64,000 bases of DNA from assembly GCA_001784175.1 (NCBI GenBank), contig MFPR01000004.1, positions 443,731-507,730 of the forward strand, in the 5' to 3' direction. The stretch's first letter is position 1. Every line of letters starts with the position of its first letter. Positions 17,545 to 52,117 of the stretch are shown here, piece by piece. The position numbers were made by a program, and so were the translations under genes. Source of the stretch: Candidatus Lindowbacteria bacterium RIFCSPLOWO2_12_FULL_62_27. GTDB taxonomy: Bacteria > Lindowbacteria > 2-12-FULL-62-27. The notes beneath the pieces are model-generated. The model was not told where the DNA came from. It saw nothing but the letters and a program-made list of their open reading frames with translations, and did no database searches.

Positions 17545-17574
17545 AGCCGATCTCAAAGGGGGAGCGTGCATCAC

Positions 17575-23556: not shown

Positions 23557-23565
23557 CGAAAGCCG

Positions 23566-23595: not shown

Positions 23596-23618
23596 GTTTC
23601 ATTCGCTTGTGCTTTCAT
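23589..23618 (+). promoter_or_regulatory. Promoter for second wbqC gene
   Basis: TTGTCA (23589-23594) and TTTCAT (23613-23618) are 18 bases apart and six bases precede the ATG at 23625. The TTCGCTTGTGCTTTCAT stretch matches the region upstream of the first wbqC. Confidence 0.45.
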
Positions 23619-23624
23619 GGATCC

Positions 23625-24404: not shown

Positions 24405-25288
24405 GAATCCTGGTCACCGGCGCCGGAGGCTATTTGGGAAGCGCCTGCGTGGGCCATCTTGCCGGGCGCCATGAAGTGACGGCGGGCGGGCACAGTTCAC
24501 CGGAACGGCCGGACGCCGTCATTCACATGGCGTTTCGATTTCCTAAAGACAACTCCGCGCGGGCCGAACTTGAAAACCAAACCGCGTTGCGCGCCATGAT
24601 TGATTTCTGCATGGCCCGGAATGTTTCGCGATTCATTTTTCCGTCCACGTATGCGGTGTATCCCTGCAGCGAGCGGACCGCGGTGGAATCGGACGCCCTG
24701 TTTCCAGAATCCGAATACGCCCGCGGAAAGGGGACGGCGGAAAGGATGCTGCAGGAGTCCGGCCTTCCCCATGTGATCCTTCGTCTGACGCACGTCTATG
24801 GCCGGGGCACCGGCGTCGGCGACGAGGGCGGCGTCATCCTGCAGTGGCTGGATCGGGCCATGCATGGAAAGGACATCGAAGTGATCGACGGAGAAACCAT
24901 CGAGCGGGACTATATCCACCTTCGTGACGTCCTGGCGGCCGTCGAGGCGTGCCTTGAAAGAGAGCCGGCCATGGGACGCGTCTACAACATCGGAAGCGGC
25001 GCCGGCGTGACGCTTCTGGATCTCGCGCGACAGATCGCGCGGATCGCCGGCGGGGAAACCGGCCGGGACGTTTCGGTGCGGAATCGCCGGAGCGCAACCC
25101 CCGTGATCTGGCGGCGGCGCGTGGACCTCCGGCGGGCGGAGGAGGAATTGGGCTTTTATCCGCGGGTCAACCTCGTGGAAGGCTTGAAAGAGATGGCGGC
25201 GGCGCGCACGACGGGACTGCCGGATCAGCGCCTCCGGCGCCCCAAGTGCCGGCGTCTCCGACGCCGGCCGGAGGCGGCCGCAAGATGA
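24401..25288 (+). CDS. NAD-dependent sugar epimerase/dehydratase with repeat-derived C-terminus
   Basis: An extended SDR: ILVTGAGGYLGSACV at the N-terminus, the FIFPSTYAVYP strand near residue 85, the catalytic YARGK pair (Tyr then Lys four residues on) near residue 107, and IERDYIHLRDVLAAVE near 165. The last 20 or so residues (DQRLRRPKCRRLRRRPE) are unusually arginine-rich because they are encoded by a copy of the hairpin repeat (25220-25272), so the native C-terminus has been replaced or extended. It overlaps both neighbours by ATGA. A UDP- or dTDP-hexose is the likely substrate. Confidence 0.82.
   Translation: MRILVTGAGGYLGSACVGHLAGRHEVTAGGHSSPERPDAVIHMAFRFPKDNSARAELENQTALRAMIDFCMARNVSRFIFPSTYAVYPCSERTAVESDALFPESEYARGKGTAERMLQESGLPHVILRLTHVYGRGTGVGDEGGVILQWLDRAMHGKDIEVIDGETIERDYIHLRDVLAAVEACLEREPAMGRVYNIGSGAGVTLLDLARQIARIAGGETGRDVSVRNRRSATPVIWRRRVDLRRAEEELGFYPRVNLVEGLKEMAAARTTGLPDQRLRRPKCRRLRRRPEAAAR
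25220..25272 (+). repeat. Two-hairpin repeat, copy B, at the 3' end of the epimerase gene
   Basis: Hairpin 1 arms GCGCC/GGCGC and hairpin 2 arms GCCGGCGTC/GACGCCGGC flank TCC loops. CCGGA bounds both ends (25220-25224 and 25268-25272). Its right end also supplies part of a GGAGG ten bases before the DegT start. Confidence 0.78.
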
Positions 25289-26427
25289 GGATCAAGGGCG
25301 CGCATCCTGCATTTTCCGAGGGTGAAATAGCGTCGATCACCGGCGAGATCGCCGAGGTCCTTCGCTCGGGCCGGCTGATTTTGGGAAGCCGGACAGAGCG
25401 GTTTGAAGCAGCCTTCGCCGAATACGTTGGAACCCGGCATGCCATCGCCGTCAATTCCGCAACGACCGCGCTCCAGATCACCCTCCAGTATCTCGATGTC
25501 AGGGACCGCGAGGTCGTCCTTCCGACCAACACATTTCTGGCCACGGCCAACGCCGTCCTGTACGCGGGGGGACGACCGGTTTTCGGCGACATCGAACCGC
25601 AGTCTCTCGCCCTGTGCCCGGACAGCCTGATCCGGAACATCACGCCGCGCACAAAAGGCGTCATCCTCGTCCATCTGGCCGGATTCATCAGCCCGCATCT
25701 GGAAGACATTCAACAGATATGCCGGGACCGGAGGTTGTTTTTGATTGAAGACGCGTCGCATGCTCATGGGGCCCTTTACAAGGGTTCAAAGGCGGGGTCG
25801 CTGTCGTTCGCCGGATGTTTTTCCTTTTATCCCACCAAAGTCATGACGGCGGCGCTGGGCGGCATGATCACGACAAACGATGCGGCCTTGGACCGCTACG
25901 CCAGAAGCCTTCGGCATCACGGCCAGACCGACCGGACGCTCGACGTGCTGACCCGGTTCGGGAACGACTGGCTTCTCGACGAAGTGCGATCCGTGATCGG
26001 CTATCATCAGTTGAGGGGGCTTGAGAATGCAGTTCTCAGGCGGAATGCCCTGGCGCGCCGGTACACGGAACGATTGAAGGACGTGAAGGGCATTCAAGTA
26101 TTTGAAGTTGCGCCTCACATCAGGCACGCCTACTATAAATTCCCGGTTTCCGTCGATCCGCCCATTTCCCGTGACCATCTGATGCGGCGGTTGAACGAGG
26201 AACATGACGTTGAGACCGGTGTACTCTATGATCCGCCCTGTCATCTCCAGCCCATTGTCATGGAAACGTTCGGCACGAAACCGGGTGACTGCCCGGTTTC
26301 CGAATCGATCCTCCGGCGTGAACTCTGCCTGCCGATGCATGTGAGCCTCACGGAAGAGGACGTCGATCGCGTGGTGGGAATCCTGTCCGCCGAAATCGAT
26401 CTCCGGATGGACATGGCGGTCGCCTGA
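25285..26427 (+). CDS. DegT/DnrJ/EryC1 family PLP sugar aminotransferase (PseC-like)
   Basis: A PLP-dependent transaminase acting on nucleotide keto-sugars. Visible elements are AVNSATTALQITL near residue 60 (cofactor phosphate), LIEDASHAHGALY near 165 (aspartate and the ASHAHG motif), and CFSFYPTKVMTAALGG near 187 with the internal-aldimine lysine. The length of 380 residues is normal. In a nonulosonic acid pathway it would aminate the 4-keto product of the PseB-like enzyme encoded at 34258. ATG 25285 overlaps the epimerase stop (ATGA) and has GGAGG upstream. Confidence 0.85.
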   Translation: MRIKGAHPAFSEGEIASITGEIAEVLRSGRLILGSRTERFEAAFAEYVGTRHAIAVNSATTALQITLQYLDVRDREVVLPTNTFLATANAVLYAGGRPVFGDIEPQSLALCPDSLIRNITPRTKGVILVHLAGFISPHLEDIQQICRDRRLFLIEDASHAHGALYKGSKAGSLSFAGCFSFYPTKVMTAALGGMITTNDAALDRYARSLRHHGQTDRTLDVLTRFGNDWLLDEVRSVIGYHQLRGLENAVLRRNALARRYTERLKDVKGIQVFEVAPHIRHAYYKFPVSVDPPISRDHLMRRLNEEHDVETGVLYDPPCHLQPIVMETFGTKPGDCPVSESILRRELCLPMHVSLTEEDVDRVVGILSAEIDLRMDMAVA

Positions 26428-27482
26428 TGGGCGGCGTCAGAATCTCGGATCGTGCGATCGGGCCGGGGCATCCCTGTTTTGTGGTAGCCGAGATCGGCAC
26501 GAACCACGATCGGAACATTCAAACGGCCCGGACCCTCATCGATGCGGCGGCGACGGCCGGCGTCGACGCGGTCAAATTTCAATTTTATCACGGCGAAGAT
26601 GTCGTCACGCCCCGGGCCACCGCCGGCGAGTACGGCCTTCACAGGATGTATCCCGGCCTTCACAGAATGGTGGACATCTACAATGGCCGGCTCCGGACCC
26701 CCCGGGCGTGGTTTCCCGAACTGAGCGACCGTGTGAGAAGGCTGGGAATGATTCCGTTCGCCGCGCCGCACTGCATCGACTGCGCGCAGTTCGCAGTGTC
26801 GCTGGGCATGCCGGCCTTCAAAGTCGCGTCCGTTGAAATCACGAACCTGCAGTTTTTGGAGGCGCTGGCCGCATTTCGAAAACCGATCATCCTCTCCACC
26901 GGCTTCGCCACCTCACGCGAGATCGCCGAGGCCGTTCGCGCGGTTCGACGCGCCGGCCACTCGAAATTGATTCTCCTGCACTGCGTTTCCGACTATCCGA
27001 CTCGGCCGCAAGACGTCAATTTGCAATTCATCCAAACGCTCCGCCGGCGATTCGGCGCACCCGTCGGATTTTCCGACCATACGACAGGCTTGGCCGTGTC
27101 GTTCGCGGCCGTCGCGCTGGGGGCGAGCGTGATCGAACGCCACGTGACACTGGATCGAAACCGGAGCGGCCCCGATCATCCGTTTGCCCTCGAGCCGCAG
27201 ATGCTGGTGGAACTCGTCCGGGGCATCCGCGACATTCATCGGGCGATGGGGAAGGCCGCCAAGAAACTCACCGCATCCGAGAGGGACAAAAGAAAACTCT
27301 TCTTCCGCAGCATCGTCGCGTCGCGGCACATTCCCAGGGGCCAGAAGATCCGCGCCGCCGACCTTGATCTCAAGCGGCCGGGCACGGGTCTGCCTCCGAA
27401 AATGCTGCGCACCGTCATCGGCCGCAGAGTGAGGAGAGACATCCGGCAATATGATCTCATTGAAACCGGTACGCTCGTCTGA
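26427..27482 (+). CDS. N-acetylneuraminate/pseudaminate-type synthase (NeuB family) with C-terminal SAF domain
   Basis: NeuB-family enzymes condense a six-carbon aminosugar with phosphoenolpyruvate to give a nonulosonic acid. The TIM-barrel signature is present: VVAEIGTNHDRNIQTA near residue 18, DAVKFQFYHGED near 48, FKVASVEITN near 130, HCVSDYPT near 185 and GFSDHTTGL near 217 with GASVIERHVTLDR near 232. The C-terminal 60 residues form an SAF antifreeze-like domain (FFRSIVASRHIPRGQ). Whether the product is pseudaminic, legionaminic or sialic acid cannot be decided from sequence. It overlaps the DegT gene by one base. Confidence 0.88.
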   Translation: MGGVRISDRAIGPGHPCFVVAEIGTNHDRNIQTARTLIDAAATAGVDAVKFQFYHGEDVVTPRATAGEYGLHRMYPGLHRMVDIYNGRLRTPRAWFPELSDRVRRLGMIPFAAPHCIDCAQFAVSLGMPAFKVASVEITNLQFLEALAAFRKPIILSTGFATSREIAEAVRAVRRAGHSKLILLHCVSDYPTRPQDVNLQFIQTLRRRFGAPVGFSDHTTGLAVSFAAVALGASVIERHVTLDRNRSGPDHPFALEPQMLVELVRGIRDIHRAMGKAAKKLTASERDKRKLFFRSIVASRHIPRGQKIRAADLDLKRPGTGLPPKMLRTVIGRRVRRDIRQYDLIETGTLV

Positions 27483-27485: not shown

Positions 27486-28481
27486 ATGAACCTGCCGACC
27501 ATGCCGGCCGCTCGTGAATTCCAGAGACTGACGCCAGACCGCGCCGAGGCCCTGGTGCCTTTCATCAAGGCCCATCGAAGCATTTATGACGGACAATTCA
27601 ACCCGGATGTCCCGCCCGACGTGCTGGGTGACTATTTCATTCATGACCTCCGGCAGAAATTCTCGGAGGGCGTGTGGGCGGGGCTGATGCATGAACCGGC
27701 AGGGGGGGGCTTCGCGGCAGCGGTATTTCATCACAGCGCATGGGACACCAATTTTTTCGGATTTCGGATGGATCGTCTCGATTATCTGTTTGGCTCACAT
27801 GAAAACGCCATGGATGCTGTTCTTTGCCGATACGCCGGCCTTTCGGAGAAGGAGGGCGTCCGCCACATCTCTGCGCGGGTAAACATGTCTGACCGTCGGA
27901 CCGCGAGCGTTCTGCGCCAAAACGGCTTTGCTGAGGTGTGCGTAAAGTCCCTCTGGCGCCACTCGCTGGCGGATCCAGCGGCGGTTCAGGTGCCATCACC
28001 CCACATTCGAGCATTTTCTCCGCAAGACGGCGACGATGTCCGAGTGCTGGCGGCGACGCTGGCCGGGGCCGGCAGATTCTCCATGGACGGACGCTTTGAT
28101 CCGAAGCGCGTCCGGGAGATGTATGAGCAGTGGGCGGTCCACCTGTGCGAAACGGCGCCGGCGCAGGTTTTGGTGGCGCGCGTGCGGGGTGCCACGGCCG
28201 GATTTTTGGTGTTTACGGTTGGCGTGCCCTTGTACGGTGCGCCGGACGTTGCCGATTTGAAGCCGGGCGTTGTCACGCACGTGGCGGTTGATCCGTCCCT
28301 GAGGGGGCGTGGGTTCGGCCGGGCGCTGATTGTCGCAGGATTGAAGCGCATGTGCGAGCTGGGCGCCCGCGCGGCGTACGCGGCAACCGCGGCGGGAAAC
28401 GCAGCCGGCGCCGCCGCTTTTCAATCGGCGGGATTCCGCCCGGTAACATCGCATTGGGATTTCCATCGATGGCTCGACTGA
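27486..28481 (+). CDS. GNAT N-acetyltransferase, WecD/PseH-like
   Basis: A 331-residue protein with two GNAT-like halves. The C-terminal half carries the acetyl-CoA motif VAVDPSLRGRGFGRALIV near residue 265; before it, AGAGRFSMDGRFD resembles the substrate segment of WecD-type TDP-fucosamine acetyltransferases. Lying directly after the aminotransferase and synthase genes, it is the candidate for N-acetylating the amino-sugar (the PseH step). The N-terminal half, with SAWDTNFFGFRM, also matches the WecD pattern. Only three bases separate it from the synthase gene. Confidence 0.78.
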   Translation: MNLPTMPAAREFQRLTPDRAEALVPFIKAHRSIYDGQFNPDVPPDVLGDYFIHDLRQKFSEGVWAGLMHEPAGGGFAAAVFHHSAWDTNFFGFRMDRLDYLFGSHENAMDAVLCRYAGLSEKEGVRHISARVNMSDRRTASVLRQNGFAEVCVKSLWRHSLADPAAVQVPSPHIRAFSPQDGDDVRVLAATLAGAGRFSMDGRFDPKRVREMYEQWAVHLCETAPAQVLVARVRGATAGFLVFTVGVPLYGAPDVADLKPGVVTHVAVDPSLRGRGFGRALIVAGLKRMCELGARAAYAATAAGNAAGAAAFQSAGFRPVTSHWDFHRWLD

Positions 28482-29194
28482 TTCAGGAGGGGGTGCGTCC
28501 CATTCTGGTCATCGCGGCCCACCCCGACGACGAGTCACTGGGCTGTGGCGGGACCATCGCGCGTCACAGCCGCCAGGGACACGACGTGCATCTTCTCATC
28601 CTCGGCGAGGGCGCCACGTCCAGAAGGCGCCATCGCACGGGCGGACGGGGCGCAGCAGCCAGGGAAGTAAAAGAATTGGACAAGGCCGTCCGCAAAGCGG
28701 CGCAGGTCCTGGGAATCAACGAGGTGCATCGCCGATATTTTCCCGACAACCGCTTTGACAGTCTGGACTTGCTCGAAATCGTCAAAACGATCGAAGAGGT
28801 CATCGAGAGGATCGGCCCCGGCCGCGTCTACACGCACAGCGCCGGGGATCTGAACCTCGACCACCGGATCGTTCACCAGGCCGTCCTGACGGCATGCCGC
28901 CCCCAGAACGGGTGCCCCGTCCAGACCATCCTGGCCTTCGAAATCCCGTCGTCCACCGAATGGCAGGGGCCTGGGAGTCACACGCCATTTTGGCCGCAAA
29001 TCTACATGGACATTAAAGAGACACTGCCGTTAAAACAGAAGGCGCTCAGTTGTTATCCGACAGAAGTCCGACCGTATCCCCATCCCCGGTCGCCTGAATC
29101 AATCGAGATCATCGCAAGACGTTGGGGCCTGAATGCAGGTCTGGAAGCCGCCGAGCCGTTCATGTTGATCCGGGATATCGTGACGTCTCCATGA
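28469..29194 (+). CDS. PIG-L/LmbE family deacetylase
   Basis: The zinc site AAHPDDESLGCGG begins near residue 16, and the second part HSAGDLNLDHRIVHQ near residue 115 supplies the other histidines and the aspartate. Family members remove N-acetyl groups from GlcNAc-containing compounds. Here it could deacetylate an N-acetylated sugar before another acyl, formyl or aminoacyl group is attached. ATG 28469 is chosen because the sequence then starts just before the zinc-site strand; it overlaps the GNAT gene by 13 bases and the next gene by ATGA. Confidence 0.85.
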   Translation: MARLIQEGVRPILVIAAHPDDESLGCGGTIARHSRQGHDVHLLILGEGATSRRRHRTGGRGAAAREVKELDKAVRKAAQVLGINEVHRRYFPDNRFDSLDLLEIVKTIEEVIERIGPGRVYTHSAGDLNLDHRIVHQAVLTACRPQNGCPVQTILAFEIPSSTEWQGPGSHTPFWPQIYMDIKETLPLKQKALSCYPTEVRPYPHPRSPESIEIIARRWGLNAGLEAAEPFMLIRDIVTSP

Positions 29195-37404: not shown

Positions 37405-38675
37405 ACATCCTCCCTGACGCCCAACACGAATTGCCGGATGCCCGCCGCACGGCATTTCTGGCGGTCCAGCACGCCGAACGGATCGACGATGAGCGCGCCG
37501 GACATGGCGGCGCGCACATCGGCCGGCGCAACATTCGAAAATTCCTTCCACGGCGTCATGACGACCAATGCGTCGGCGCCTTCGACGGCCTCCCGCGCGC
37601 TGGTGACCTGCACGCCGTTCGGCGCCGCGTCTTTGTCCAGCATGGCCTGCGGATCATACGCCTTCAGGGAAAGGGGCGCCAGGGCCCGCATCAGCGCGAC
37701 TGCCGGCGAGTTCTTGATGGACGCCGTATCGGCCTTGTAGGCGATCCCCCAGATGCCGATTTTAGGGCGTGGGTGATGCGCCAGCAGATGCGTTTTGAGA
37801 ATTCGCATCGGCCAGTTTTTTCTGTGCGCGCTGTTGGCGAGAAAGGCGTCGATGACACCCCCATCCGTGCCCCGCGTGAGGGCCATCGATTGAACGGCCG
37901 CAAGATCCCGCTCGATGTTGCCGCCGCCGATGCCCAGACCCGGCACGAGATACGCGTGAGGGCCGATCCGCCGGTCGGATTTCAGCGCCGGAATAATCTC
38001 GGACCAGTCCGCGCCCACCGTCTCGCACAGCTCCGCCAGCGTGTTGGAAGCGGACAGCGATGCCGCCAGACACACGTTGATGGAAATCTTCGCCAGCTCG
38101 GCGCTCTCGTATCGCATTTGAACTACGGGACAGCCGAAAACGTCGAGAATCGCCCGGTACGCCGCCGGCAGCCTCTCGGCCGGATTCGCGCAACCCACAA
38201 TGAACCGCTCGGGGTTACGCGCCCGGTCCACCGCGTCGCCGAAAATCAGCGTTTCGACCTGGTAGTAGAGGCGGATGTCCCGCCGCGCGCCGGCCAGGGT
38301 CCGCATCGTGCCCGGCGGAAGCTGGCTCATGACCGCAAGGACCGCATCCGGCGGCGCGGCCCGGACGGCCGTGTCGAAGAGATGATGAAACCTCGTGAGA
38401 TCGCTTCGATTCTGGTGGTCGGTTGCGATGTCGATGGAAACATGAATGACCCGGCAGGATGCGAGACCCCCGGGATCGGACATGAAACGAATCCGGCCGG
38501 CGTTTTCTCGAAAAAGTTCCGCAAGGCCCTTCTCATAAATCGGTAAGCGACCGTGCGTCAGATCCCGGCACAGGTCCTCATCGGAATCGAACGCCAGAAC
38601 CTGATCCCCGGTTTTCGCCGCGATCACAATGCTCGATACGATTCCCAGATGGGACAGGCCGGCGAACCCGATCAT
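37401..38675 (-). CDS. UDP-glucose/GDP-mannose dehydrogenase-family protein lacking the catalytic cysteine
   Basis: The three-domain family pattern is present: MIGFAGLSHLGIV (NAD site), YESAELAKISINVCLA near residue 189 with the lysine and asparagine of the active site, and the C-terminal IWGIAYKADTASIKNSPA near 330. The loop that should read GGSCFPKD or GGHCIPVD reads GIGGGNIERD (residues 248-257), so Asn253 stands where the thioester-forming cysteine belongs. A full four-electron oxidation to a uronic acid is therefore unlikely. A single oxidation or a different reaction is inferred. ATG 38675 overlaps the Gfo/Idh stop by ATGA. Confidence 0.75.
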   Translation of the reverse strand: MIGFAGLSHLGIVSSIVIAAKTGDQVLAFDSDEDLCRDLTHGRLPIYEKGLAELFRENAGRIRFMSDPGGLASCRVIHVSIDIATDHQNRSDLTRFHHLFDTAVRAAPPDAVLAVMSQLPPGTMRTLAGARRDIRLYYQVETLIFGDAVDRARNPERFIVGCANPAERLPAAYRAILDVFGCPVVQMRYESAELAKISINVCLAASLSASNTLAELCETVGADWSEIIPALKSDRRIGPHAYLVPGLGIGGGNIERDLAAVQSMALTRGTDGGVIDAFLANSAHRKNWPMRILKTHLLAHHPRPKIGIWGIAYKADTASIKNSPAVALMRALAPLSLKAYDPQAMLDKDAAPNGVQVTSAREAVEGADALVVMTPWKEFSNVAPADVRAAMSGALIVDPFGVLDRQKCRAAGIRQFVLGVREDV

Positions 38676-42953: not shown

Positions 42954-43556
42954 TCACGCGCTTTCGCGAATGCGCTCGGCCAGTCGATACGTGATGAGAT
43001 GGTGCAGGACAACGTGGAACGATTCGACGTGGGGCGTGGTGTTCCAGGGAACGACAATGCAGGCGTCGGTCATCTGCTTCATGGCGCCGCCGTCAAATCC
43101 GCTGAATCCCAGCGCCACACCTCCGTGGTCCGTGGCGTATCCAAGGCCCTTCAGGAGATTCTGGGACCACCGCCCCGCCTTGTCCTTGCCCGATCCTCCG
43201 TGGACGCTGAGGGCCAGCGCCACGTCGCCGGGCTCAAAAAAGTTCTTCATCTGTTCCGTGTAGACATTCTCCCAGCCGTCGTCGTTCGTCAGGGCGCTGA
43301 CCCATGGCACGCTGTCGACGAGGCTCATGACTTTGATGCGTTTCTTTCCCTCGATGGCCGTGCACTTGTTGAGGTCCGCGGCGAAATGGGACGCGGTGCC
43401 GGCTGATCCGCCGTTGCCGAAAATGAAGATCCGCCGGCCTTTTTCCCAGGCGCCGTAGAGATACTCGATCACGCGGTCGATGTCGGCCCGGTTTATCTGG
43501 CGGGCGATTTCGACGATGCCATCCAAGTAGGTGTTGATGTAAGCCTCATTTCTCAT
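42954..43556 (-). CDS. gmhA: SIS-domain sugar isomerase, GmhA-like
   Basis: FGNGGSAGTASHFAADLNK near residue 55 is the phosphosugar-binding loop of phosphoheptose isomerase (GmhA) and DiaA-like proteins, and SVHGGSGKDKAG near 115 is a second part of the site. GmhA converts sedoheptulose 7-phosphate to D-glycero-D-manno-heptose 7-phosphate. The 200-residue length fits. HddA-, HddC- and HldE-like genes in the same island favour the heptose role over DiaA. It is divergent from the ligase/carrier-protein operon and has its own promoter and a GAGGGG Shine-Dalgarno. Confidence 0.8.
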   Translation of the reverse strand: MRNEAYINTYLDGIVEIARQINRADIDRVIEYLYGAWEKGRRIFIFGNGGSAGTASHFAADLNKCTAIEGKKRIKVMSLVDSVPWVSALTNDDGWENVYTEQMKNFFEPGDVALALSVHGGSGKDKAGRWSQNLLKGLGYATDHGGVALGFSGFDGGAMKQMTDACIVVPWNTTPHVESFHVVLHHLITYRLAERIRESA

Positions 43557-43654: not shown

Positions 43655-44836
43655 ATGATGGAATGGATTTTTGCCTGTTCTCCGCCTCTTTCGGCTCCAG
43701 TTCAAAAAGCGGCGCGCTACCGGCTGCATTTTTGCTCGCCCGAGATCATCCGATTTCAGGTTTCTCCGGATGCCATACGTCTCACGCTGTCGACCGACGA
43801 CGAGTCCGTCTGGCATGAGGTGTCCCGCAAGGTTGAGCGGGTGGTATCCGGCGTGCGGGACGGATTTGTCCCGCCGGAGGAGCGTTTGTACATGGAGCGG
43901 CGGCATCCCTCGCCGGCGTGGTCCGGCGCCGGTGTGAACCTCGAACAGGCCGGCCTGATCAAGAAAGCCGGCGAAGGATTTTACGTGACCGGCCCCTTGA
44001 TCGCCGGGCTGGTGGAGCGGCTGGATCGAATTCTCCTGGATATGGCGGATGTCTTCGGCGCGCGAGCCGTCGGAACGCCGGCCCTGATCGCACCCGAAGT
44101 TCTGTCCCGCGTGGACTATTTCCGCGCCTTTCCCCACTCTCTCACGTTCGCGTGTCATCTCCCGCGGGACGTGGACGAGATCGAGGCCTTTTCGAAACAA
44201 CCTTTCGAGGCGGACGGATCGCTGGCGCCGGCCGCCTCCGGCGCGGGCGCAGCCGTTCTGTCTCCCGCCGTCTGTTTTCATCTCTACCATTTTCTCGAGG
44301 GCACAAGCCTGGGTCAGGCCCTCGAATCCTACACTGTCCGCGGGCGGTGTTTCCGATATGAGGCCGGCGCGCTCGCGGGGCTCGAACGGCTGTGGGACTT
44401 CACCATGCGCGAAATCGTCTTTGTCGGAGAGCAAGCCGATGTCATGGACGCCCGCAAGCGGTCGATGGAGTGGGTCACGGACCTCGCGGACCGCCTGGGT
44501 CTGGTATGCCGGATCGAGAGCGCGGCCGATCCCTTTTTTGTGGGCGAGTTCAAACAGCGCACGGTCTTTCAGGCCGCGTTTGATTTGAAATATGAGTGGC
44601 GCGCCGACCTCGATCCCGCCGCCGCGGACGATCTGGCCGTCGGATCGTTCAACGTTCATCAGACGCATTTCGGCAAGGCCTTCCGGATCGCCGCACCGTC
44701 CGGCGAGATGGCCTGGACGGGCTGCACGGCATTCGGGCTCGAACGGCTGGCGCTTGCGGTCCTGCGGCAGCACGGTCTTTCTCCGGACGGCTGGCCGGAG
44801 ATTCTGAAATCTGATCTTTCCGTGTCAATCGAATGA
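43655..44836 (+). CDS. Amino acid:[carrier protein] ligase-like (class II seryl-tRNA synthetase homologue)
   Basis: A class II synthetase catalytic core without a tRNA-binding coiled-coil arm. Motif 2 is GRCFRYEAG near residue 232 and motif 3 is CTAFGLERLALAVL near 365. The likely zinc ligands of this group are all present: Cys167 (TFACHL), Glu236 (FRYE) and the Cys of TGCTAFG. Aminoacyl:carrier-protein ligases of this type (Bll0957 of Bradyrhizobium) activate Gly or Ala and load it on a phosphopantetheine carrier. The next gene encodes such a carrier, with an ATGA overlap. It starts an operon with formyltransferase and heptose genes. The amino acid is unknown. Confidence 0.82.
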   Translation: MMEWIFACSPPLSAPVQKAARYRLHFCSPEIIRFQVSPDAIRLTLSTDDESVWHEVSRKVERVVSGVRDGFVPPEERLYMERRHPSPAWSGAGVNLEQAGLIKKAGEGFYVTGPLIAGLVERLDRILLDMADVFGARAVGTPALIAPEVLSRVDYFRAFPHSLTFACHLPRDVDEIEAFSKQPFEADGSLAPAASGAGAAVLSPAVCFHLYHFLEGTSLGQALESYTVRGRCFRYEAGALAGLERLWDFTMREIVFVGEQADVMDARKRSMEWVTDLADRLGLVCRIESAADPFFVGEFKQRTVFQAAFDLKYEWRADLDPAAADDLAVGSFNVHQTHFGKAFRIAAPSGEMAWTGCTAFGLERLALAVLRQHGLSPDGWPEILKSDLSVSIE

Positions 44837-45069
44837 CCGGCGCGGCCGACACTGTCAAGTCCTTCATCGCGCGCGCGCTCAAAATCGACGAGTCGGCCGT
44901 CCACGAGTCGCTGCAGCTCGGCGCCATCCCCCAGTGGGATTCGTTCGGACACATCAATCTGATGATGGCGCTTGAAGCCGAATACGGCGTGCCGATCACC
45001 GAGCAGACGGTGCTCCAGCACGTTTCCTACGCCGCCATCGCCGCGAGCCTCGCCGCGCTAAAACGATGA
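44833..45069 (+). CDS. Acyl carrier protein-like phosphopantetheine protein
   Basis: A 78-residue four-helix carrier protein with the modification site QWDSFGHINL, Ser37 being the expected phosphopantetheine attachment point. It is placed between, and overlaps, the carrier-protein ligase and the formyltransferase gene (ATGA on both sides). The direct partner is therefore the ligase, which would charge the thiol with an amino acid. No fatty-acid or polyketide genes are near. Confidence 0.88.
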   Translation: MTGAADTVKSFIARALKIDESAVHESLQLGAIPQWDSFGHINLMMALEAEYGVPITEQTVLQHVSYAAIAASLAALKR

Positions 45070-46013
45070 CCCGGTTTCTTCTGGTCGGCAATGGCCGGCC
45101 GCTGGAGGAAGTGTGCCAGGCGATCCCGCGACTGGGCGGGGAAGTCGCCGGCGTGTACGCCAATCCGGAATCTGCACGGCGGCTGCAAGCCATGGGAATC
45201 GATCCGCAGCAGTCTTCGATTCTGCGCGCGCCGGAAGCCGCGGAAGTCATACGCGCGCAAAGGATCGACTGGCTGCTCAATGTCCAATCGCAAGTTGTTT
45301 TTCCGGCGGCCGTGATTCGCGCGCCGGCGCTCGGCGCGATCAATTTCCATCCGGGACCCCTGCCCGAAGGCGCCGGCCTCACGGCGCATGAGTGGGCCGT
45401 CATTCTGGGCGAATCGGCCTTCGCGGCGACCCTCCATTATATGACGCCTGATCTGGACGCCGGCCCCATCATCGTACGCAGGGATTTCGAAATTTCCGAC
45501 ACCGACACCGGCCTCACGCTTCTCGCGCACGCCTGGCGCGTCGGCACCGAGCTTTTGTGCGATCTCCTCCCGTCGTTGATCGCCGGGCAGCGGCCGTCGG
45601 CTTATGCTCAGGACAAATCGAAGTTCCGCTACTTTCCCGGCAAGCCTCCGCACGGCGGGCGGATCGACGTGAGTTGGCCCGCGGATCGGATTTTGAATTT
45701 TGTCCGCGCGCTCCAGTATTATCCCCTGCAGTCGCCCTCCGGACCGCCCCGGCTTGTCGTAAACGGCGAGCCATTCGCTGTGTTGCAGGCCGAACGCGGC
45801 GAATCCTCATCCGGGCATTCTCCGCCAGGTAAAATCACTGAAGTTTCGGAGAGGGGCGTTCAGATTGCGGTGAGCGGCCACGAAAGCGTCTGGATCATTC
45901 GTCTCCTGCGCGAAGGATCTCCCGTCGCCGCCGGGCCATTCTTTCAGCGGCACGGCATCTCCGCCGGCGCCCTCTGCGACACGGAACTTCCGGCCTCCTC
46001 CGGGCGGCCGTGA
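45066..46013 (+). CDS. Formyltransferase, methionyl-tRNA/sugar formyltransferase family
   Basis: The folate-dependent formyltransferase core is intact: INFHPGPLPEGAG near residue 96 carries the catalytic Asn and His, and TPDLDAGPIIVRRDF near 133 the catalytic Asp. A C-terminal domain follows from about residue 205 (RIDVSWPADRILNFVRAL), as in methionyl-tRNA and sugar formyltransferases. Placement after a carrier protein in a glycan island favours formylation of an amino-sugar (as ArnA or FdtF do) or of a carrier-bound amino acid over initiator tRNA. It overlaps both neighbours. Confidence 0.83.
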   Translation: MTRFLLVGNGRPLEEVCQAIPRLGGEVAGVYANPESARRLQAMGIDPQQSSILRAPEAAEVIRAQRIDWLLNVQSQVVFPAAVIRAPALGAINFHPGPLPEGAGLTAHEWAVILGESAFAATLHYMTPDLDAGPIIVRRDFEISDTDTGLTLLAHAWRVGTELLCDLLPSLIAGQRPSAYAQDKSKFRYFPGKPPHGGRIDVSWPADRILNFVRALQYYPLQSPSGPPRLVVNGEPFAVLQAERGESSSGHSPPGKITEVSERGVQIAVSGHESVWIIRLLREGSPVAAGPFFQRHGISAGALCDTELPASSGRP

Positions 46014-46768
46014 GCCAAGGCGCTGTCGGCATCGAAACGGTTGACTGGGAAGCTGTCCACCGGCTGTCCTTCGTTGACGAGCCCGGTTGCTGGACCAGCG
46101 GCTGTCAGAGCTATTGCTGCACGCACAAATCGGACCTTCTGGCATTCTCGATCCTCACGGGCGGCGCCGGCATGATTTTTTTCGAAGCCGAATATGACTA
46201 TCTCCGGGCATCGGGCCGCCTGCAAAAGGGGTTTGAGTCCCACGCCAAACGCATGTCCTATGAACTGGCGCCGGGCCTCCATCTAAGATTCGTCCTTTCC
46301 AAATGCGAATTGAACGGCATCTGCACGATTCGGGAGTCCCGGCCGCTCTGTTGCAAGCTCTATCCGTTTTTGCCGCGCGTCGACCCGGCGACATCCGCAC
46401 TGACCGGTTTCGTGTCCGGCACGGTCTTCGACGCCTTCTGGCCGGTCCTCGGCGTCCCGCATCCCTGCACGCTCGCACGCGAGAAGGCCGACGCGGTGCA
46501 AGCACGGATGAAACCGTCGCTCACGCGCCTGCTCGGCCATCCATACTTCTTGTTTCATTTCCGTGCGGTGGAAATTCTTCTCGACCGCATTTCCGAAGGG
46601 TTGGACGCGCTCAAACGAGCCCACGCGGGTATCGACGCCCGTGCGCTGTCCAGAAAGTGGGAACTCCTCTATCTGACCGGAAAGGCCTTTGACGGCGGGC
46701 GCCTGCGTGCCGATCTCCTCCACGCCTATTCAACGGTTGCGGCGCGCTTCCCGGGATTCGAGATTTAA
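46010..46768 (+). CDS. Cys-cluster (YkgJ-like) protein of unknown function
   Basis: Two cysteine groups stand out: PGCWTSGCQSYCC near residue 26 and, about 85 residues later, ICTIRESRPLCCKLYPF. The CC and C-x-Y/RPLCC pattern resembles YkgJ-type proteins that may bind iron-sulfur or zinc. A helical C-terminal half follows. It starts at GTG 46010, overlapping the formyltransferase stop as GTGA, and two bases separate it from the nucleotidyltransferase gene. It is thus part of the ligase/carrier-protein operon, but its role is not evident. Confidence 0.65.
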   Translation: MSQGAVGIETVDWEAVHRLSFVDEPGCWTSGCQSYCCTHKSDLLAFSILTGGAGMIFFEAEYDYLRASGRLQKGFESHAKRMSYELAPGLHLRFVLSKCELNGICTIRESRPLCCKLYPFLPRVDPATSALTGFVSGTVFDAFWPVLGVPHPCTLAREKADAVQARMKPSLTRLLGHPYFLFHFRAVEILLDRISEGLDALKRAHAGIDARALSRKWELLYLTGKAFDGGRLRADLLHAYSTVAARFPGFEI

Positions 46769-46769: not shown

Positions 46770-47516
46770 ATGAATGCGGCCGGCCGCGTCCGCGACGCCG
46801 TCATTCTCGCCGGCGGACAGGGAACGCGGATTCGGCATCTGATTCCGAACATTCCAAAACCGATGGTCGAAACCGCTGGCCGGCCGTTCGTTGAATCGGT
46901 GGTGCGGCTCCTCAGGGATCAGGGAATCGAGCGCATCGTCTTCAGCACGGGACATCGCGCCGAAGTTCTTGAGACTTTTTTCGGCGACGGGCGCACATGG
47001 GACATGCGCATCGTTTATCTCAGGGACCCCGTCCCGCTCGGAACCGGCGGCGCCGTCCGGCATGCGCTCCGGGAGGTACGGTCGGATCGGTTTCTTGTTC
47101 TCAATGGAGATTCCTATTGTCGGTTTGATGTCGATTCCATGGTATCCGTCCATGAGAAAACGCGCGCCGGCGTGACGATCTGGCTGGCACGGTCGGACCG
47201 CATCGCCGAATCAGGCCGCGTCGACATTCGCGAGGACGGAACCGTGACGGGCTTTCTGGAAAAACCTGCCGACCCGCAAGCCGGCTTCGTCAACGCGGGC
47301 GTGTATCTGTTCGACCGGCAGGCCGCCGAAACGATCCCGGACGGAAAAACCGTCTCGCTCGAACACGACGTATTTCCGAATCTGGTTGGCCGCGGGCTCA
47401 GTGCAGTGCCCGGCCCGCACCCGCTTCTGGACATCGGCACCGAATCGGGCCTGCAGGCCGCGGCAGCGTTTTTTCAGCATGAATTTCCGTTGAAATCATG
47501 CACTGAAACCTGCTAA
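46770..47516 (+). CDS. Sugar-1-phosphate nucleotidyltransferase, HddC-like
   Basis: AVILAGGQGTRIRHLIPNIP near residue 10 with KPMVE after it is the nucleotide-binding loop of NDP-sugar pyrophosphorylases; LVLNGDSYCRFD near 110 holds the metal-binding aspartate and GFLEKP near 160 the sugar contact. The size of 248 residues fits HddC, which makes GDP-D-glycero-D-manno-heptose. The neighbouring HddA-like kinase gene supports this reading. ATG 46770 lies two bases after the previous stop. Confidence 0.8.
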   Translation: MNAAGRVRDAVILAGGQGTRIRHLIPNIPKPMVETAGRPFVESVVRLLRDQGIERIVFSTGHRAEVLETFFGDGRTWDMRIVYLRDPVPLGTGGAVRHALREVRSDRFLVLNGDSYCRFDVDSMVSVHEKTRAGVTIWLARSDRIAESGRVDIREDGTVTGFLEKPADPQAGFVNAGVYLFDRQAAETIPDGKTVSLEHDVFPNLVGRGLSAVPGPHPLLDIGTESGLQAAAAFFQHEFPLKSCTETC

Positions 47517-47553: not shown

Positions 47554-48609
47554 GTGATCATTTCGAAGACGCCGTATCGCATATCTTTCTTCGGCGGCGG
47601 CACCGATTATCCGGCGTGGTACCGCAAGGAAGAGGGGGCGGTGCTGTCGACGACCATCGACAAGTACTGCCACATCACCTGCCGGCACCTGCCGCCGTTT
47701 TTCAACCACAAACACCATGTGGTGTGGTCCCATAACGAAACGGTTTCCTCCATCTCCGAGATTCTTCACCCCGCTGTCCGCGAGGGACTGCGATACATGG
47801 GGTTTGACGACTCGGTTGGACTTGAAATCTCGCACCAGGGGGATCTGCCGGCGCGCACGGGCATCGGATCGAGTTCGGCCTTCACGGTCGGGCTTATCCT
47901 CGCGCTGTCGGCGTTGAGGGGCCGGACAATGGACAAGCGGGAACTCGCGCTCCGCGCCATCGAGCTTGAGCAGGACGTCATCAAAGAATCCGTCGGGTCA
48001 CAGGATCAGGCGGCGGCGGCCTTCGGTGGGTTCAACCACATCCGGTTTTCCAAAGACGGGGTATTCGCCGTCGATCCCACGGACGTTCCGCAGCACCGAG
48101 TGGAGCAACTGGAATCCCGGCTCATGCTGCTGTTCACGGGCACCAGCCGCCTTTCGACGGACGTCGCGTCTTTGATCGTTCAAAATCTCAAGAACAGGAC
48201 CGCAACGCTCCGCCGCATGCGCGATCTCGTCGACCGCGCGGTAGCCCTGCTCAAGGGCAAAACATCCCTCGATGAGTTCGGAGAACTTCTTCATGAAGGC
48301 TGGCAGCTTAAACGAAATCTCGCCGGGCCGGTGACCAATCCGACCATCGACGCCGTATACCAGACAGCTCGCGAGGCGGGCGCGCTGGGCGGGAAACTCC
48401 TCGGCGCGGGCGCGGCGGGATTCATGGTGTTTTACGTCCCGCCCGACCGGCAGGACCCCGTGCGGCAGGCGCTCCCCAATTATCTCTGGGTTCCGTTTGC
48501 TTTCGAGTCCGACGGCGCGAAGATCATACACAACAGCTCCTTCCCGGAAATCCCCCCCGAGGTCGCGGCGCCCGAGGCCGCCGGCGCGGCCGTCCGCGCA
48601 GCCGGCTGA
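47554..48609 (+). CDS. hddA: D-glycero-D-manno-heptose 7-phosphate kinase (GHMP family)
   Basis: A GHMP kinase with TPYRISFFGGGTDYPAWY at the N-terminus, which is characteristic of HddA, the ATP loop ARTGIGSSSAFTVGL near residue 110, and motif 3 GGKLLGAGAAGFMVFY near 285. HddA makes heptose 1,7-bisphosphate. The GTG start at 47554 has a clear GAGAGGAGGGG upstream. The C-terminal 20 residues are rich in Ala and Pro. It lies between the HddC-like gene and the RmlC-like gene; no GmhB phosphatase gene was recognised in the window. Confidence 0.85.
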   Translation: MIISKTPYRISFFGGGTDYPAWYRKEEGAVLSTTIDKYCHITCRHLPPFFNHKHHVVWSHNETVSSISEILHPAVREGLRYMGFDDSVGLEISHQGDLPARTGIGSSSAFTVGLILALSALRGRTMDKRELALRAIELEQDVIKESVGSQDQAAAAFGGFNHIRFSKDGVFAVDPTDVPQHRVEQLESRLMLLFTGTSRLSTDVASLIVQNLKNRTATLRRMRDLVDRAVALLKGKTSLDEFGELLHEGWQLKRNLAGPVTNPTIDAVYQTAREAGALGGKLLGAGAAGFMVFYVPPDRQDPVRQALPNYLWVPFAFESDGAKIIHNSSFPEIPPEVAAPEAAGAAVRAAG

Positions 48610-48612: not shown

Positions 48613-49137
48613 GTGGAGGTCACCCGCACCAAACTCGACGGCGTCCTGCGGATCCGGCCGCCGACCTGCTTCAAGGATTTTCGCGGGGAATACGTCGAAC
48701 TCTACAACGAAAAAGTCTATCGCGAAGCTGGGATCACTGTGTCATTCATCCAGGACGACATCTCGGTTTCCGGCAGAAACGTCCTGCGCGGGATTCACGG
48801 CGACCACAAAACATGGAAACTCGTCTCGTGCCTTTACGGAGAGTTTTTCATGGCGGTCGTCGACTGCCGCGACGGATCGGCCGGATTCGGCAAATGGGAA
48901 TCCTTCACCCTCTCGGAACATAACCGGCTTCAGGTCCTGGTCCCGCCCTCCTTCGGCCTCGCGCACCTCGTGCTGAGCGACCGGGCGATTTTTCATTACA
49001 AGCAGTCAACCTACTACGACCGCGCGTCCCAGTTCACCTATCGGTGGAACGATCCGCGCTTCGCCATTCCATGGCCAGTCCAGAACCCCATCCTGTCCGA
49101 ACGCGACCAGATGGGCGGCAGCCGATCGATCTCCTGA
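48613..49137 (+). CDS. RmlC-like dTDP/GDP-sugar 3,5-epimerase family protein
   Basis: A cupin-fold epimerase of 174 residues. NVLRGIHGDHKTWKLV near residue 56 has the catalytic histidine of RmlC, VVDCRDGSAGFGKWE near 80 is the conserved strand, and HYKQSTYYDRASQ near 130 the tyrosine-containing segment. In Campylobacter heptose pathways RmlC-like proteins epimerise 4-keto-6-deoxyheptose nucleotides, and the adjacent heptose kinase makes that role plausible here. It starts at GTG 48613. The 121 bases after it hold no recognisable gene, promoter or terminator. Confidence 0.78.
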   Translation: MEVTRTKLDGVLRIRPPTCFKDFRGEYVELYNEKVYREAGITVSFIQDDISVSGRNVLRGIHGDHKTWKLVSCLYGEFFMAVVDCRDGSAGFGKWESFTLSEHNRLQVLVPPSFGLAHLVLSDRAIFHYKQSTYYDRASQFTYRWNDPRFAIPWPVQNPILSERDQMGGSRSIS

Positions 49138-49258: not shown

Positions 49259-50305
49259 CTATTCTTCGGTAACAGAAAGATCCATCAACGTCTGTGCCGC
49301 GCGATGCGCGCCCAACCCGTCCACCAGCTCACGGCCACGCGCCGACATGCCGGACCGGCGCCGGGGGTCTGTCAGAAGGTCTGTGACCAGGGGGGCGATC
49401 GTTTCCGGAATCGCGCCGCTCTGGGAGGCGAACCCCGCCAGACACGCGCACCCGTGCCGGACCAGGGCCGACGCGTTCGGCGCCTGATTCGGCGCCAGCG
49501 CCAGGATCGCCATCGGCACGCCCAGGCAGCACAGTTCCCAGCAGGTCGATCCTGCCGCATTGACGGACACATCGGCGGCGGCCATGAGGTCCGCCATGTT
49601 CTCGGCGTTTCTTATGATGCGGATTTCGTGTTTCGAATCGGCGACCGCGCGATCAAGCCCGGCGGTCGCGGCCCCTTCACCGCCGAGGACGCACTGCACA
49701 ACGAAAGAACGCGGCGCTTGATTCAGCGCAACAAGGACTTCGGCACAAGTGTCAGCCGTGGCGCCCCCGCCGAATGTCACAAGCACCTGCCGGTCGTTCG
49801 CGCTGAACTTTCGTGTCTGTGACTGGCGAATCCTGGAGAACTCCGGCCGCAGGAGCGCGTAGGCCGGCCCACGTAAAACGCGGCATTCCGGCGACACCCG
49901 GTAGGACATATCCACCGCGTCCGGATTCTGATTCAGCACCCAGTTCGCCGCGCCCAGATCCCGGTCGGCCAGATCGTCGATGACGGCCACTTGAAAACCG
50001 GCTGCGCGTAATTGCCGAAAATCGGCGGGGGTCGCGCCGTAGTGGTCCACCACCACGCAGCGGGCGCCCACGGCCATGGCCCGGTCTACCGTGAAAGCCG
50101 TGTCCAGCGCGCCTGCGACGCGCTCCACCGCAAACCCCGCCTGCTCGACCACGCGAAGCGGCGTGTCCGCGATCGGACGCATGACGAAAACGGGTTCGCC
50201 GCCGAGATCGCGCAGCGCAAGGGCCAGCGCCACACACCGGCGCACATGGCCCATGCCGATCTCGGGCGACCCGTCGCATCGAAACAGAAAGGGAATCCGG
50301 CGCAT
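49259..50305 (-). CDS. pseG: PseG-like UDP-sugar hydrolase (GT-B fold)
   Basis: FRCDGSPEIGMGHVRRC near residue 8 is the signature of PseG/SpsG, the hydrolase that removes UDP from the diacetamido-trideoxy sugar in pseudaminic acid synthesis. VVVDHYGATPADF near 85, VLVTFGGGATADT near 170 and VSVNAAGSTCWELCCLG near 245 complete the GT-B pattern. Length (348) fits. It stands alone on the minus strand, divergent from a radical SAM gene, far from the NeuB-like gene it should work with. Confidence 0.82.
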   Translation of the reverse strand: MRRIPFLFRCDGSPEIGMGHVRRCVALALALRDLGGEPVFVMRPIADTPLRVVEQAGFAVERVAGALDTAFTVDRAMAVGARCVVVDHYGATPADFRQLRAAGFQVAVIDDLADRDLGAANWVLNQNPDAVDMSYRVSPECRVLRGPAYALLRPEFSRIRQSQTRKFSANDRQVLVTFGGGATADTCAEVLVALNQAPRSFVVQCVLGGEGAATAGLDRAVADSKHEIRIIRNAENMADLMAAADVSVNAAGSTCWELCCLGVPMAILALAPNQAPNASALVRHGCACLAGFASQSGAIPETIAPLVTDLLTDPRRRSGMSARGRELVDGLGAHRAAQTLMDLSVTEE

Positions 50306-50356: not shown

Positions 50357-52117
50357 ATGAATATCGTAATTTGCAACGCGGTCGGCGTGGACCGGGAGGA
50401 GAATCACATCGTTCACTCGCCGAGCCGGTGGTCGTTCAGCATGAAAAATTATGACGACGTGTTCACCTACTACCCGTGGGAACTCTGCTACACCTCTGCA
50501 CTCCTGAAGCGCCGGACCGGCCACCGGGTCCGGTTCCTCGATCCGTGCATCGAGCGATGGGACGCGGAGGAAACGACGCGCCGGATACTCTCAGAAAAAC
50601 CCGATCTCCTCCTCATGGAACCCTCGTCGCGGACTTTCCGCGAAGATTGGTCGGTCGCATCCGAGGTCAAAGCACGGCTCGGCACGAAAATCGCGCTGGC
50701 CGGCCAGCACGCCTCTGCCTTCCCCGAAACGCTCGCCCGCGAGGCCGACTACATCCTGATCGGCGAGTACGAGGGGACCGTGCTGGACATTGTGTCCGGT
50801 GTCGACCGCAGCAAGATTTCCGGGCTGTACCCGAACCCGCGGCGGCCGGCGATGGACATCACGAGTCTGCCGTGGCCGGAGGACGAGGACGTGTCGCGGA
50901 TCCGCTACGCGATTCCGGGCGAGCCGAACTGCGAGTACACGGAAATCCAGATGTACGCCAGCCGCGGTTGCCCCTTTCATTGCAACTATTGCGCCTCCGG
51001 CACCGTCTACTTCGCCGGCTGGCGGCCGCGCGAAGTCCGCAACGTCGCCGACGAAATCGAGGCGATGGGACACAAGTATCCGGAATGCGAGGGATTTTTT
51101 CTTGACGAGGAGGAACACAATACCGGAAAAAAATTTGTTCTGCAACTCGCGGAAGAGATCCGGCGGCGCGGCCTGAACCGGTACAAGTTCGACGCGATGT
51201 GCGCCTATTTCAATCTCGACCGACCCGTGCTCGAAGCGATGGCCTCGGCCGGGTACTACAAGATCCGCGCGGGGGTCGAGACCCTGAGCGAGAAGACCGC
51301 GAGAGGCATGGACCTCGGCGCGAAATTCAATCCGGAAAAACTTGTACAGGCAATGACCCTCTGCCGGGAACTCGGACTTCATTTCTATGGCACCTTTACC
51401 ATCGGCGGCTGGGGATCGACCCGCGAGGAAGACCTGGTGACGGGACGGTTCATCGAGGACGCGGCCGCTCGGGGTCTTCTGCACGATCTCCAGATGTCCA
51501 TCAACACGCCCCAGCCCGGAACGCCGTTTTATCAGAAAGCCAAATCGGCCGGGTATCTCCTGACTGAAGACTGGCACAAATTCGACGGAGGCCGGCAGTC
51601 GGTCGTCAGTTACCCGGATTATCCGGCTGACGAAATCGTCCGGACCTATGACGACGTCCTGCGCCACTACGACTGCGGCCTCTATCGTCGAAACCGCGAC
51701 CTGTTCCGAAAACATTTCTCTGAATCCTTCGGCCAGGGTAACCGGCCCGGCGCGCGGAACATCCTCATCCTGCGATCGACCCGCATGTGGCACGTCCGGC
51801 TGGCAGCCGAATGCCTCCGGGACGCCGGCGCGGAGGTGTCGCTTCTGGGCCAGGACCGGATCCGGCCCGATTTGAACGGCATGGCCGGCGTGCGGGACTT
51901 CTTCTCTTATGGCGACGGCCACATGCATCCGGAAGCCATCGACCGGGGCCTTTTGAACCACCTCCGGGACCGCCGATTTGATCTCGTGCTGGCGCTGTAC
52001 AGCAACACGGACGGCCGGTCGTTCGAGAATGTCCGAAAGGTTGCGCGGCGGATCGCCGACGGCGACGGAGCCGTCGCCGCAGTCGCTCATGACGGAACCG
52101 TCCTCCCCATCCGCTGA
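50357..52117 (+). CDS. B12-binding-domain radical SAM protein with extra C-terminal domain
   Basis: An N-terminal cobalamin-domain-like region (VRFLDPCIERWD, then ALAGQHASAFPE near residue 115) precedes the radical SAM cluster CPFHCNYC near residue 207 and the barrel segments FFLDEEEHN and RAGVETLSEKTARGM. From about residue 470 a separate Rossmann-like domain begins (NILILRSTRMWHVRLAAE), not usual in this family. The protein is related in layout to 31080-32633. Sugar or lipid C-methylation is possible, but the substrate is unknown. It overlaps the next GT2 gene by 29 bases. Confidence 0.78.
   Translation: MNIVICNAVGVDREENHIVHSPSRWSFSMKNYDDVFTYYPWELCYTSALLKRRTGHRVRFLDPCIERWDAEETTRRILSEKPDLLLMEPSSRTFREDWSVASEVKARLGTKIALAGQHASAFPETLAREADYILIGEYEGTVLDIVSGVDRSKISGLYPNPRRPAMDITSLPWPEDEDVSRIRYAIPGEPNCEYTEIQMYASRGCPFHCNYCASGTVYFAGWRPREVRNVADEIEAMGHKYPECEGFFLDEEEHNTGKKFVLQLAEEIRRRGLNRYKFDAMCAYFNLDRPVLEAMASAGYYKIRAGVETLSEKTARGMDLGAKFNPEKLVQAMTLCRELGLHFYGTFTIGGWGSTREEDLVTGRFIEDAAARGLLHDLQMSINTPQPGTPFYQKAKSAGYLLTEDWHKFDGGRQSVVSYPDYPADEIVRTYDDVLRHYDCGLYRRNRDLFRKHFSESFGQGNRPGARNILILRSTRMWHVRLAAECLRDAGAEVSLLGQDRIRPDLNGMAGVRDFFSYGDGHMHPEAIDRGLLNHLRDRRFDLVLALYSNTDGRSFENVRKVARRIADGDGAVAAVAHDGTVLPIR

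What the first reader, a model, noticed from the sequence alone, without database searches (positions are those of the whole stretch)
43655..46768. Amino acid:carrier-protein ligase, carrier protein, formyltransferase and Cys-cluster protein as one translationally coupled module in a glycan island
Four genes overlap by GTGA/ATGA, starting with a tRNA-synthetase homologue that lacks a tRNA-binding arm but keeps the expected zinc ligands, followed by its probable phosphopantetheine partner (Ser37). Known ligases of this type load Gly or Ala on carrier proteins, but their downstream use is poorly understood. Here the setting (deacetylase, FemAB-like and GNAT proteins, sugar-type formyltransferase) suggests that a carrier-bound, possibly N-formylated amino acid is transferred to an amino-sugar. 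I know of no described pathway with this combination.
Basis: partly seen in the sequence, partly recalled or inferred. Interest (0 to 1): 0.8.

Follow-up and report, generated by a model that had tools for sequence, protein, structure and literature searches.

The report
Carrier-bound amino acid decorating a glycan
Four overlapping genes in a sugar-coat gene island appear to load an amino acid onto a small carrier protein, cap it with a formyl group, and probably hand it on to a surface sugar; each part resembles something known, but the combination was not found described anywhere I could search.

Summary
Four genes (43655-46768) overlap by ATGA/ATGA/GTGA in a pseudaminic-acid/GDP-heptose type glycan island of an organism whose phylum has only 3 genomes held.

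Gene 1 is an amino acid:carrier-protein ligase-like protein: Zn ligands Cys207/Glu236/Cys357 kept, grouped with carrier-protein ligases apart from SerRS at 100/100, though below the curated equivalog cut-off. Gene 2 is a carrier protein (Ser37).

One reader point was corrected: the formyltransferase is not sugar-type. It groups with formyl-transferase domains of NRPS/PKS proteins (100/99); clades with Fmt, ArnA and VioF/QdtF-like enzymes are each rejected (p < 0.0003). Aminoacyl-S-carrier is its likeliest substrate.

The Cys-cluster protein is rare. In two unrelated lineages (Solidesulfovibrio plasmids, Helicobacter valdiviensis) it also sits right behind a carrier protein; there the ligase is an NRPS-type A-domain and an AAC(3)-type N-acyltransferase follows. 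Its CX4CX3CC motif equals that of FliB, a [4Fe-4S] methyltransferase.

Best reading: a formylated, perhaps further modified, aminoacyl thioester destined for a glycan amine. Amino acid, acceptor and the Cys protein's reaction remain inferred. New variant of a known kind.

The parts
43655..44836 (+). Amino acid:carrier-protein ligase-like protein (class II aaRS core, 393 aa, Zn ligands C207/E236/C357)
44833..45069 (+). Carrier protein, 78 aa, phosphopantetheine site Ser37; overlaps the ligase gene by 4 bases
   Evidence: PF00550 22.9 bits; alignment
45066..46013 (+). Formyltransferase of NRPS/PKS type (N- and C-domains, N-H-D triad); overlaps the carrier gene by 4 bases
46010..46768 (+). Cys-cluster protein (CX4CX3CC, eight conserved Cys); overlaps the formyltransferase gene by 4 bases
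46770..47516 (+). Sugar-1-phosphate nucleotidyltransferase (HddC/ManC-like), probably same operon
47554..48609 (+). GHMP sugar kinase (HddA-like), probably same operon
48613..49137 (+). RmlC-like 3,5-epimerase, probably same operon
42954..43556 (-). GmhA-like SIS protein, divergent from the module
49259..50305 (-). PseG-like sugar nucleotide hydrolase (214 bits, over the 153.55 cut-off)
25246..26427 (+). PseC-like DegT aminotransferase
26427..27482 (+). NeuB/PseI-like nonulosonate synthase
27486..28481 (+). GNAT protein, candidate aminoacyl transferase (inference only)
28352..29194 (+). PIG-L deacetylase, candidate for freeing the acceptor amine (inference only); the start used here overlaps the GNAT gene and may lie further downstream

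Best explanation
The operon makes a carrier-protein-bound, N-formylated amino acid for decorating a surface glycan. The ligase adenylates a small amino acid (Gly, Ser or Ala; Ser slightly favoured by its nearest relatives) and loads it on the phosphopantetheine of the carrier protein (strong homology, not assayed). The formyltransferase moves a formyl group from 10-formyl-THF to the amine of the aminoacyl thioester, as NRPS formylation domains do (inferred from tree and motif). The Cys protein acts on the same thioester or on its transfer, possibly as a FliB-like [4Fe-4S] SAM methyltransferase (weak inference). A transferase, perhaps the GNAT at 27486 after PIG-L deacetylation, then places the acyl group on a sugar amine, for example of a pseudaminic-acid-type nonulosonate (inferred from context and parallel loci). 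Step confidences: ligase loads the carrier 0.9; formylation on the carrier 0.75; product goes to a glycan 0.6; acceptor is an amine 0.5; Cys protein is a methyltransferase 0.3.
For: Three 4-base overlaps. Ligase groups with carrier-protein ligases, 100/100 against SerRS, Zn ligands kept. Formyltransferase joins NRPS/PKS rows at 100/99; Fmt, ArnA and sugar-type clades rejected. A Cys-protein homologue lies behind ligase and carrier protein, and before an AAC(3)-type N-acyltransferase, in Solidesulfovibrio and Helicobacter. The Helicobacter locus also has a DUF4910 protein; the aminopeptidase-like Cj1295 of C. jejuni is needed for replacing an N-acetyl group of pseudaminic acid (PMC3068675). AcpS present. 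N-formyl-L-alanyl and N-acetylalanyl sugars are known.
Against: No assay. The transferase is not identified; the GNAT and PIG-L genes are 15 kb away and no AAC(3) protein is in the genome. Neighbouring operon genes are heptose-type, not amino-sugar genes. No second locus with both formyltransferase and Cys protein was found. Formyltransferase branch is long and the NRPS rows were picked by BLAST with it.
Confidence: 0.55

Rival explanations
1. The module supplies a formyl-aminoacyl (or aminomalonyl-like) unit for a small secreted metabolite, and its place in the glycan island is incidental.
For: Nearest ligase relatives sit in Streptomyces NRPS/PKS-type clusters, and formyltransferase relatives are NRPS/PKS proteins.
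Against: No NRPS condensation, PKS or 3-hydroxyacyl/acyl-CoA dehydrogenase domain was found in the proteins scanned here; the operon continues into sugar nucleotide genes.
Confidence: 0.18
2. The carrier-bound amino acid is esterified to a hydroxyl of a sugar, for example a heptose, rather than to an amine (Dlt- or Alm-like).
For: The same operon holds HddC- and HddA-like genes with a divergent GmhA-like gene; A-domains of the parallel loci are DltA-like. Glycine esters on LPS heptose are known (general knowledge, not checked here).
Against: The parallel loci carry AAC(3)-type N-acyltransferases; no MBOAT or DltB/DltD-type protein was seen among the window proteins scanned.
Confidence: 0.15
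3. The formyltransferase acts on a nucleotide amino sugar, independently of the aminoacyl carrier.
For: Setting in an amino-sugar island; sugar N-formyltransferases are common in such islands.
Against: Tree rejects grouping with ArnA (p 2.6e-4) and VioF/QdtF-like enzymes (p 8.9e-5); direct overlap with the carrier gene.
Confidence: 0.09
4. The ligase is a tRNA synthetase paralogue and the formyltransferase an initiator-tRNA enzyme, or the carrier is loaded by fatty-acid enzymes.
For: The families are distantly related to SerRS and Fmt.
Against: Housekeeping SerRS (517 bits) and Fmt exist elsewhere; no tRNA-binding domain match; clade with Fmt rejected, p 1.1e-5.
Confidence: 0.03

Closest known systems
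Amino acid:[carrier protein] ligases (Bll0957 of Bradyrhizobium and relatives)
   Same: Class II aaRS core without tRNA arm, Zn ligands Cys/Glu/Cys, carrier protein gene adjacent
   Different: Only about 28-40% identical, below the NF005479 cut-off; longer N-terminus; partnered with a formyltransferase and Cys protein instead of an acyl-CoA dehydrogenase
NRPS formylation domains (as in linear gramicidin synthetase LgrA)
   Same: Formyl_trans N and C domains, N-H-D triad, PLP-x-x-x-G loop, tree position with formyltransferase domains of NRPS/PKS proteins
   Different: Stand-alone protein, used with a discrete ligase and carrier in a glycan island
A-domain/CP/Cys/AAC(3) loci of Solidesulfovibrio and Helicobacter valdiviensis (undescribed as far as searched)
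   Same: Amino-acid activation, free carrier protein and a homologous Cys protein directly behind it
   Different: Ligase is an NRPS-type A-domain, no formyltransferase, N-acyltransferase encoded next door
FliB flagellin lysine methylase
   Same: CX4CX3CC motif and eight conserved Cys
   Different: Shorter, not recognised by the FliB model; homology only suggestive
Wbp/Vim linking-sugar pathway of Porphyromonas/Tannerella
   Same: Deacetylation of a sugar and transfer of Ser or Gly to its amine
   Different: No carrier protein is mentioned there; VimA and VimE belong to other families than the window's GNAT and PIG-L
Dlt (D-Ala on teichoic acid) and Alm (Gly on lipid A) systems
   Same: Ligase plus carrier protein deliver an amino acid to the cell envelope (general knowledge)
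   Different: A-domain ligases, membrane-side transferases, no formylation

Membership tests
Amino acid:[carrier protein] ligase (NF005479/Bll0957) | Class II aaRS core with Zn ligands Cys/Glu/Cys | tested here: met
   C207, E236, C357
Amino acid:[carrier protein] ligase (NF005479/Bll0957) | No tRNA-binding domain | tested here: met
   SerRS models match only from about position 202; structure not modelled
Amino acid:[carrier protein] ligase (NF005479/Bll0957) | Groups with carrier-protein ligases, not with SerRS | tested here: met
   100/100
Amino acid:[carrier protein] ligase (NF005479/Bll0957) | Curated equivalog score | tested here: not met
   158 of 357 bits; so it works like one but is not filed under this equivalog
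Amino acid:[carrier protein] ligase (NF005479/Bll0957) | Loads an amino acid on a carrier protein | not testable with these tools
   needs enzyme assay
NRPS-type formyltransferase | N-H-D catalytic triad | tested here: met
   NFHPG...DLDAG aligned with Fmt/NRPS rows
NRPS-type formyltransferase | Tree position with NRPS/PKS formyltransferase domains | tested here: met
   100/99; three other clades rejected
NRPS-type formyltransferase | Formylates a carrier-bound amino acid | not testable with these tools
   needs enzyme assay
Sugar N-formyltransferase | Groups with ArnA or VioF/QdtF-like enzymes | tested here: not met
   p 2.6e-4 and 8.9e-5
Methionyl-tRNA formyltransferase | Groups with Fmt | tested here: not met
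   p 1.1e-5; separate Fmt in genome
FliB lysine methylase | CX4CX3CC motif | tested here: met
   CWTSGCQSYCC; reported motif in PMC8598068
FliB lysine methylase | Match to NF038110 | tested here: not met
   not hit
FliB lysine methylase | Common ancestry by profile comparison | tested here: inconclusive
   hhalign probability 23-44%, scores 33-37 against 15-18 for shuffles; typical FliB pair alone 0.7%
FliB lysine methylase | [4Fe-4S] cluster and SAM-dependent methylation | not testable with these tools
   needs spectroscopy and assay
Wbp/Vim-like aminoacyl sugar pathway | VimA/pep-cterm_femAB transferase, CE4 deacetylase, WbpS (eps_aminotran_1) | tested here: not met
   The window's GNAT, PIG-L and AsnB-like proteins hit other families; analogy only

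The most novel reading that the evidence does not exclude
A glycan-decorating pathway that builds its acyl donor like a detached one-module NRPS: an aaRS-derived ligase, a free carrier protein, an NRPS-derived formyltransferase and a FliB-like iron-sulphur protein make an N-formylated, possibly methylated aminoacyl thioester that is transferred to a nonulosonic acid. The Cys protein would mark a wider class of such systems in which the ligase has been exchanged between two unrelated enzyme superfamilies.
Probability: 0.3. Interest if true: 0.75.

Novelty: new variant of a known kind. Interest (0 to 1): 0.6.

Why it matters
Aminoacyl and formyl-aminoacyl sugars are known in bacterial surface glycans, but their activated amino-acid donor is often unknown, and what aaRS-derived carrier-protein ligases are used for is poorly understood. 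This module proposes a directly testable answer to both, and offers a rare marker gene (the Cys protein) for finding more such loci.

Tried and rejected
Sugar-type and tRNA-type formyltransferase: rejected by tree tests. AAC(3) transferase in this genome: none. Ligase in the two other held genomes of the phylum: none. Viral contigs with ligase or Cys protein: none. Structure prediction of the Cys protein from two sequences: mean pLDDT 51, too poor, so no fold search was run. Amino-acid specificity from active-site columns: not decidable; the A-domains of the parallel loci score best against generic amino-acid and DltA models but were not assigned an amino acid. WbqC link to glycyl sugars: nothing found in the library. 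Whether Campylobacter Cj1307/Cj1308 form a homologous set: recalled only, not tested; [quoted passage not shown] The primary paper on Bll0957 is not held.

Full report
WHAT IS THERE. A nucleotidyltransferase gene starts one base after the fourth, then a GHMP kinase and an RmlC-like epimerase follow on the same strand, so the transcription unit probably has seven genes. Around it lie PseC-, NeuB/PseI- and PseG-like genes, a cytidylyltransferase, a GNAT protein, a PIG-L deacetylase, an asparagine-synthase-like protein, glycosyltransferases, methyltransferases and two WbqC-family genes. The host genome (4.39 Mb, 94% complete) belongs to a phylum of which only three genomes are held; the ligase was not found in the other two, both less complete.

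LIGASE AND CARRIER. The ligase matches Bll0957 at E 2.5e-37 and archaeal-type SerRS less well. It keeps the Zn ligands C207, E236 and C357 and is separated, with twelve other carrier-protein ligases, from SerRS at 100/100. The nearest relatives are Streptomyces enzymes in clusters with a 3-hydroxyacyl-CoA dehydrogenase, a carrier protein, an acyl-CoA dehydrogenase and an acyltransferase. That is the layout of the zwittermicin aminomalonyl-ACP genes, in which ZmaJ loads serine (PMC6395733); I infer Ser for those and only lean to Ser here. The curated cut-off of NF005479 is not met (158 of 357 bits), so it works like such a ligase but is not filed as an equivalog. The housekeeping SerRS is elsewhere. 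The carrier protein has Ser37 and the genome encodes AcpS.

FORMYLTRANSFERASE. Among its best plasmid homologues many are N-terminal parts of NRPS/PKS proteins. In a tree of 16 rows it joins these at 100/99; holding it with Fmt, ArnA or VioF/QdtF-like enzymes is rejected at p 1.1e-5, 2.6e-4 and 8.9e-5. Caveats: its own branch is long, the NRPS rows were chosen by BLAST with it, and the VioF/QdtF-like rows score below their family's cut-off. The closest relative, a stand-alone protein on a Deinococcus plasmid, lies between a FemAB/GNAT-like gene and an A-domain/luciferase/carrier gene, next to polysaccharide genes. The model reaction is formylation of a carrier-bound amino acid, as in linear gramicidin synthetase (general knowledge; LgrA chains match weakly).

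CYS PROTEIN. No curated family claims it. Homologues are rare: one further weak, partial hit in 386 genomes and one confirmed locus in a pattern-limited scan of the GTDB species set. Yet every full-length homologue found lies directly behind a carrier-protein gene. Solidesulfovibrio plasmids pDMC1 and pDCAR1 read A-domain, carrier, Cys protein, AAC(3). Helicobacter valdiviensis reads A-domain, DUF4910, carrier, Cys protein, AAC(3). The two plasmids are near-identical here and count as one lineage. Thus a carrier protein with an amino-acid-activating enzyme of either superfamily recurs with this protein, which points to functional linkage. In C. jejuni the aminopeptidase-like Cj1295 is needed for the version of pseudaminic acid whose 5-N-acetyl is replaced by a dimethylglyceroyl group (PMC3068675); that the DUF4910 protein of Helicobacter is its relative is my recollection and was not tested. 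The CX4CX3CC motif and eight conserved Cys match those reported for FliB, a [4Fe-4S] SAM methyltransferase (PMC8598068). Profile comparison is suggestive but not conclusive, the FliB model does not recognise the protein, and the spacing differs by one residue in Solidesulfovibrio.

HOW IT MOST LIKELY WORKS. Shown by sequence: gene order, families, catalytic and metal residues, tree positions, recurring neighbourhoods. Inferred: amino acid loaded on the carrier; formylated there; possibly methylated or otherwise handled by the Cys protein; transferred to a sugar amine. Not shown: the amino acid, the acceptor, the transferase. Chemical precedents exist: N-formyl-L-alanyl in the V. anguillarum O2 antigen (PMC10059132), N-acetylalanyl and N-acetylglycyl amino sugars (PMC3210612), and N-seryl or N-glycyl linking sugars in P. 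gingivalis and T. forsythia, where the deacetylase VimE and the transferase VimA are proposed (PMC7468200). The window's adjacent GNAT, PIG-L and AsnB-like genes resemble that pathway in kind, but belong to other families and sit about 15 kb from the module. The heptose-type genes in the operon leave ester transfer to a heptose open as a rival.

NOVELTY. Every component belongs to or near a known family, and amino acids activated on carrier proteins for surface polymers are known (Dlt, Alm). The combination of an aaRS-type ligase with an NRPS-type formyltransferase and this Cys protein in a glycan island was found in no other locus and in no paper searched here. I rate it a new variant of a known kind.

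Noticed in passing
L022:6934-11478 (Helicobacter valdiviensis): A-domain ligase, DUF4910 protein, carrier protein, Cys protein and AAC(3)-type transferase in one run: a parallel system without formyltransferase.
   Followed up: partly
L019:13156-16726 and L020:13156-16727 (Solidesulfovibrio plasmids): A-domain ligase, carrier protein, Cys protein, AAC(3)-type transferase; CDP-glycerol glycerophosphotransferase gene nearby on the other strand.
   Followed up: partly
L051:2722-12879 (Tsukamurella plasmid): An annotated amino acid:carrier-protein ligase with carrier protein and PPTase inside a polysaccharide/glycosyltransferase cluster: a second glycan setting for this ligase family.
   Followed up: no
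L023:8777-20573 (Deinococcus plasmid): FemAB/GNAT-like gene, stand-alone formyltransferase (closest relative of the window's), A-domain/luciferase/carrier protein and PKS next to polysaccharide genes.
   Followed up: no
window 27486-31083: GNAT, PIG-L deacetylase and asparagine-synthase-like genes side by side, reminiscent in kind of the VimA/VimE/WbpS trio.
   Followed up: partly
window 4709-5788 and 23481-24404: Two WbqC-family (PF08889) genes of unclear role in the same island.
   Followed up: no
window 17566-18423 and 36409-37551: A transketolase N-terminal domain gene and a dehydrogenase E1-type gene in a glycan island; role unclear.
   Followed up: no
window 31044-32633 and 50357-52117: A B12-binding radical SAM protein (first) and a similar-looking radical SAM-type ORF (second, not scanned).
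   Followed up: no
L055, L056 (G000 contig C6): The genome holds two exosortase genes, so PEP-CTERM-like protein anchoring may exist alongside this glycan island.
   Followed up: no
L004 (G000:C4:156469-156810): A further, very divergent formyltransferase-like gene of the same genome beside a polysaccharide-deacetylase-like reading frame.
   Followed up: no
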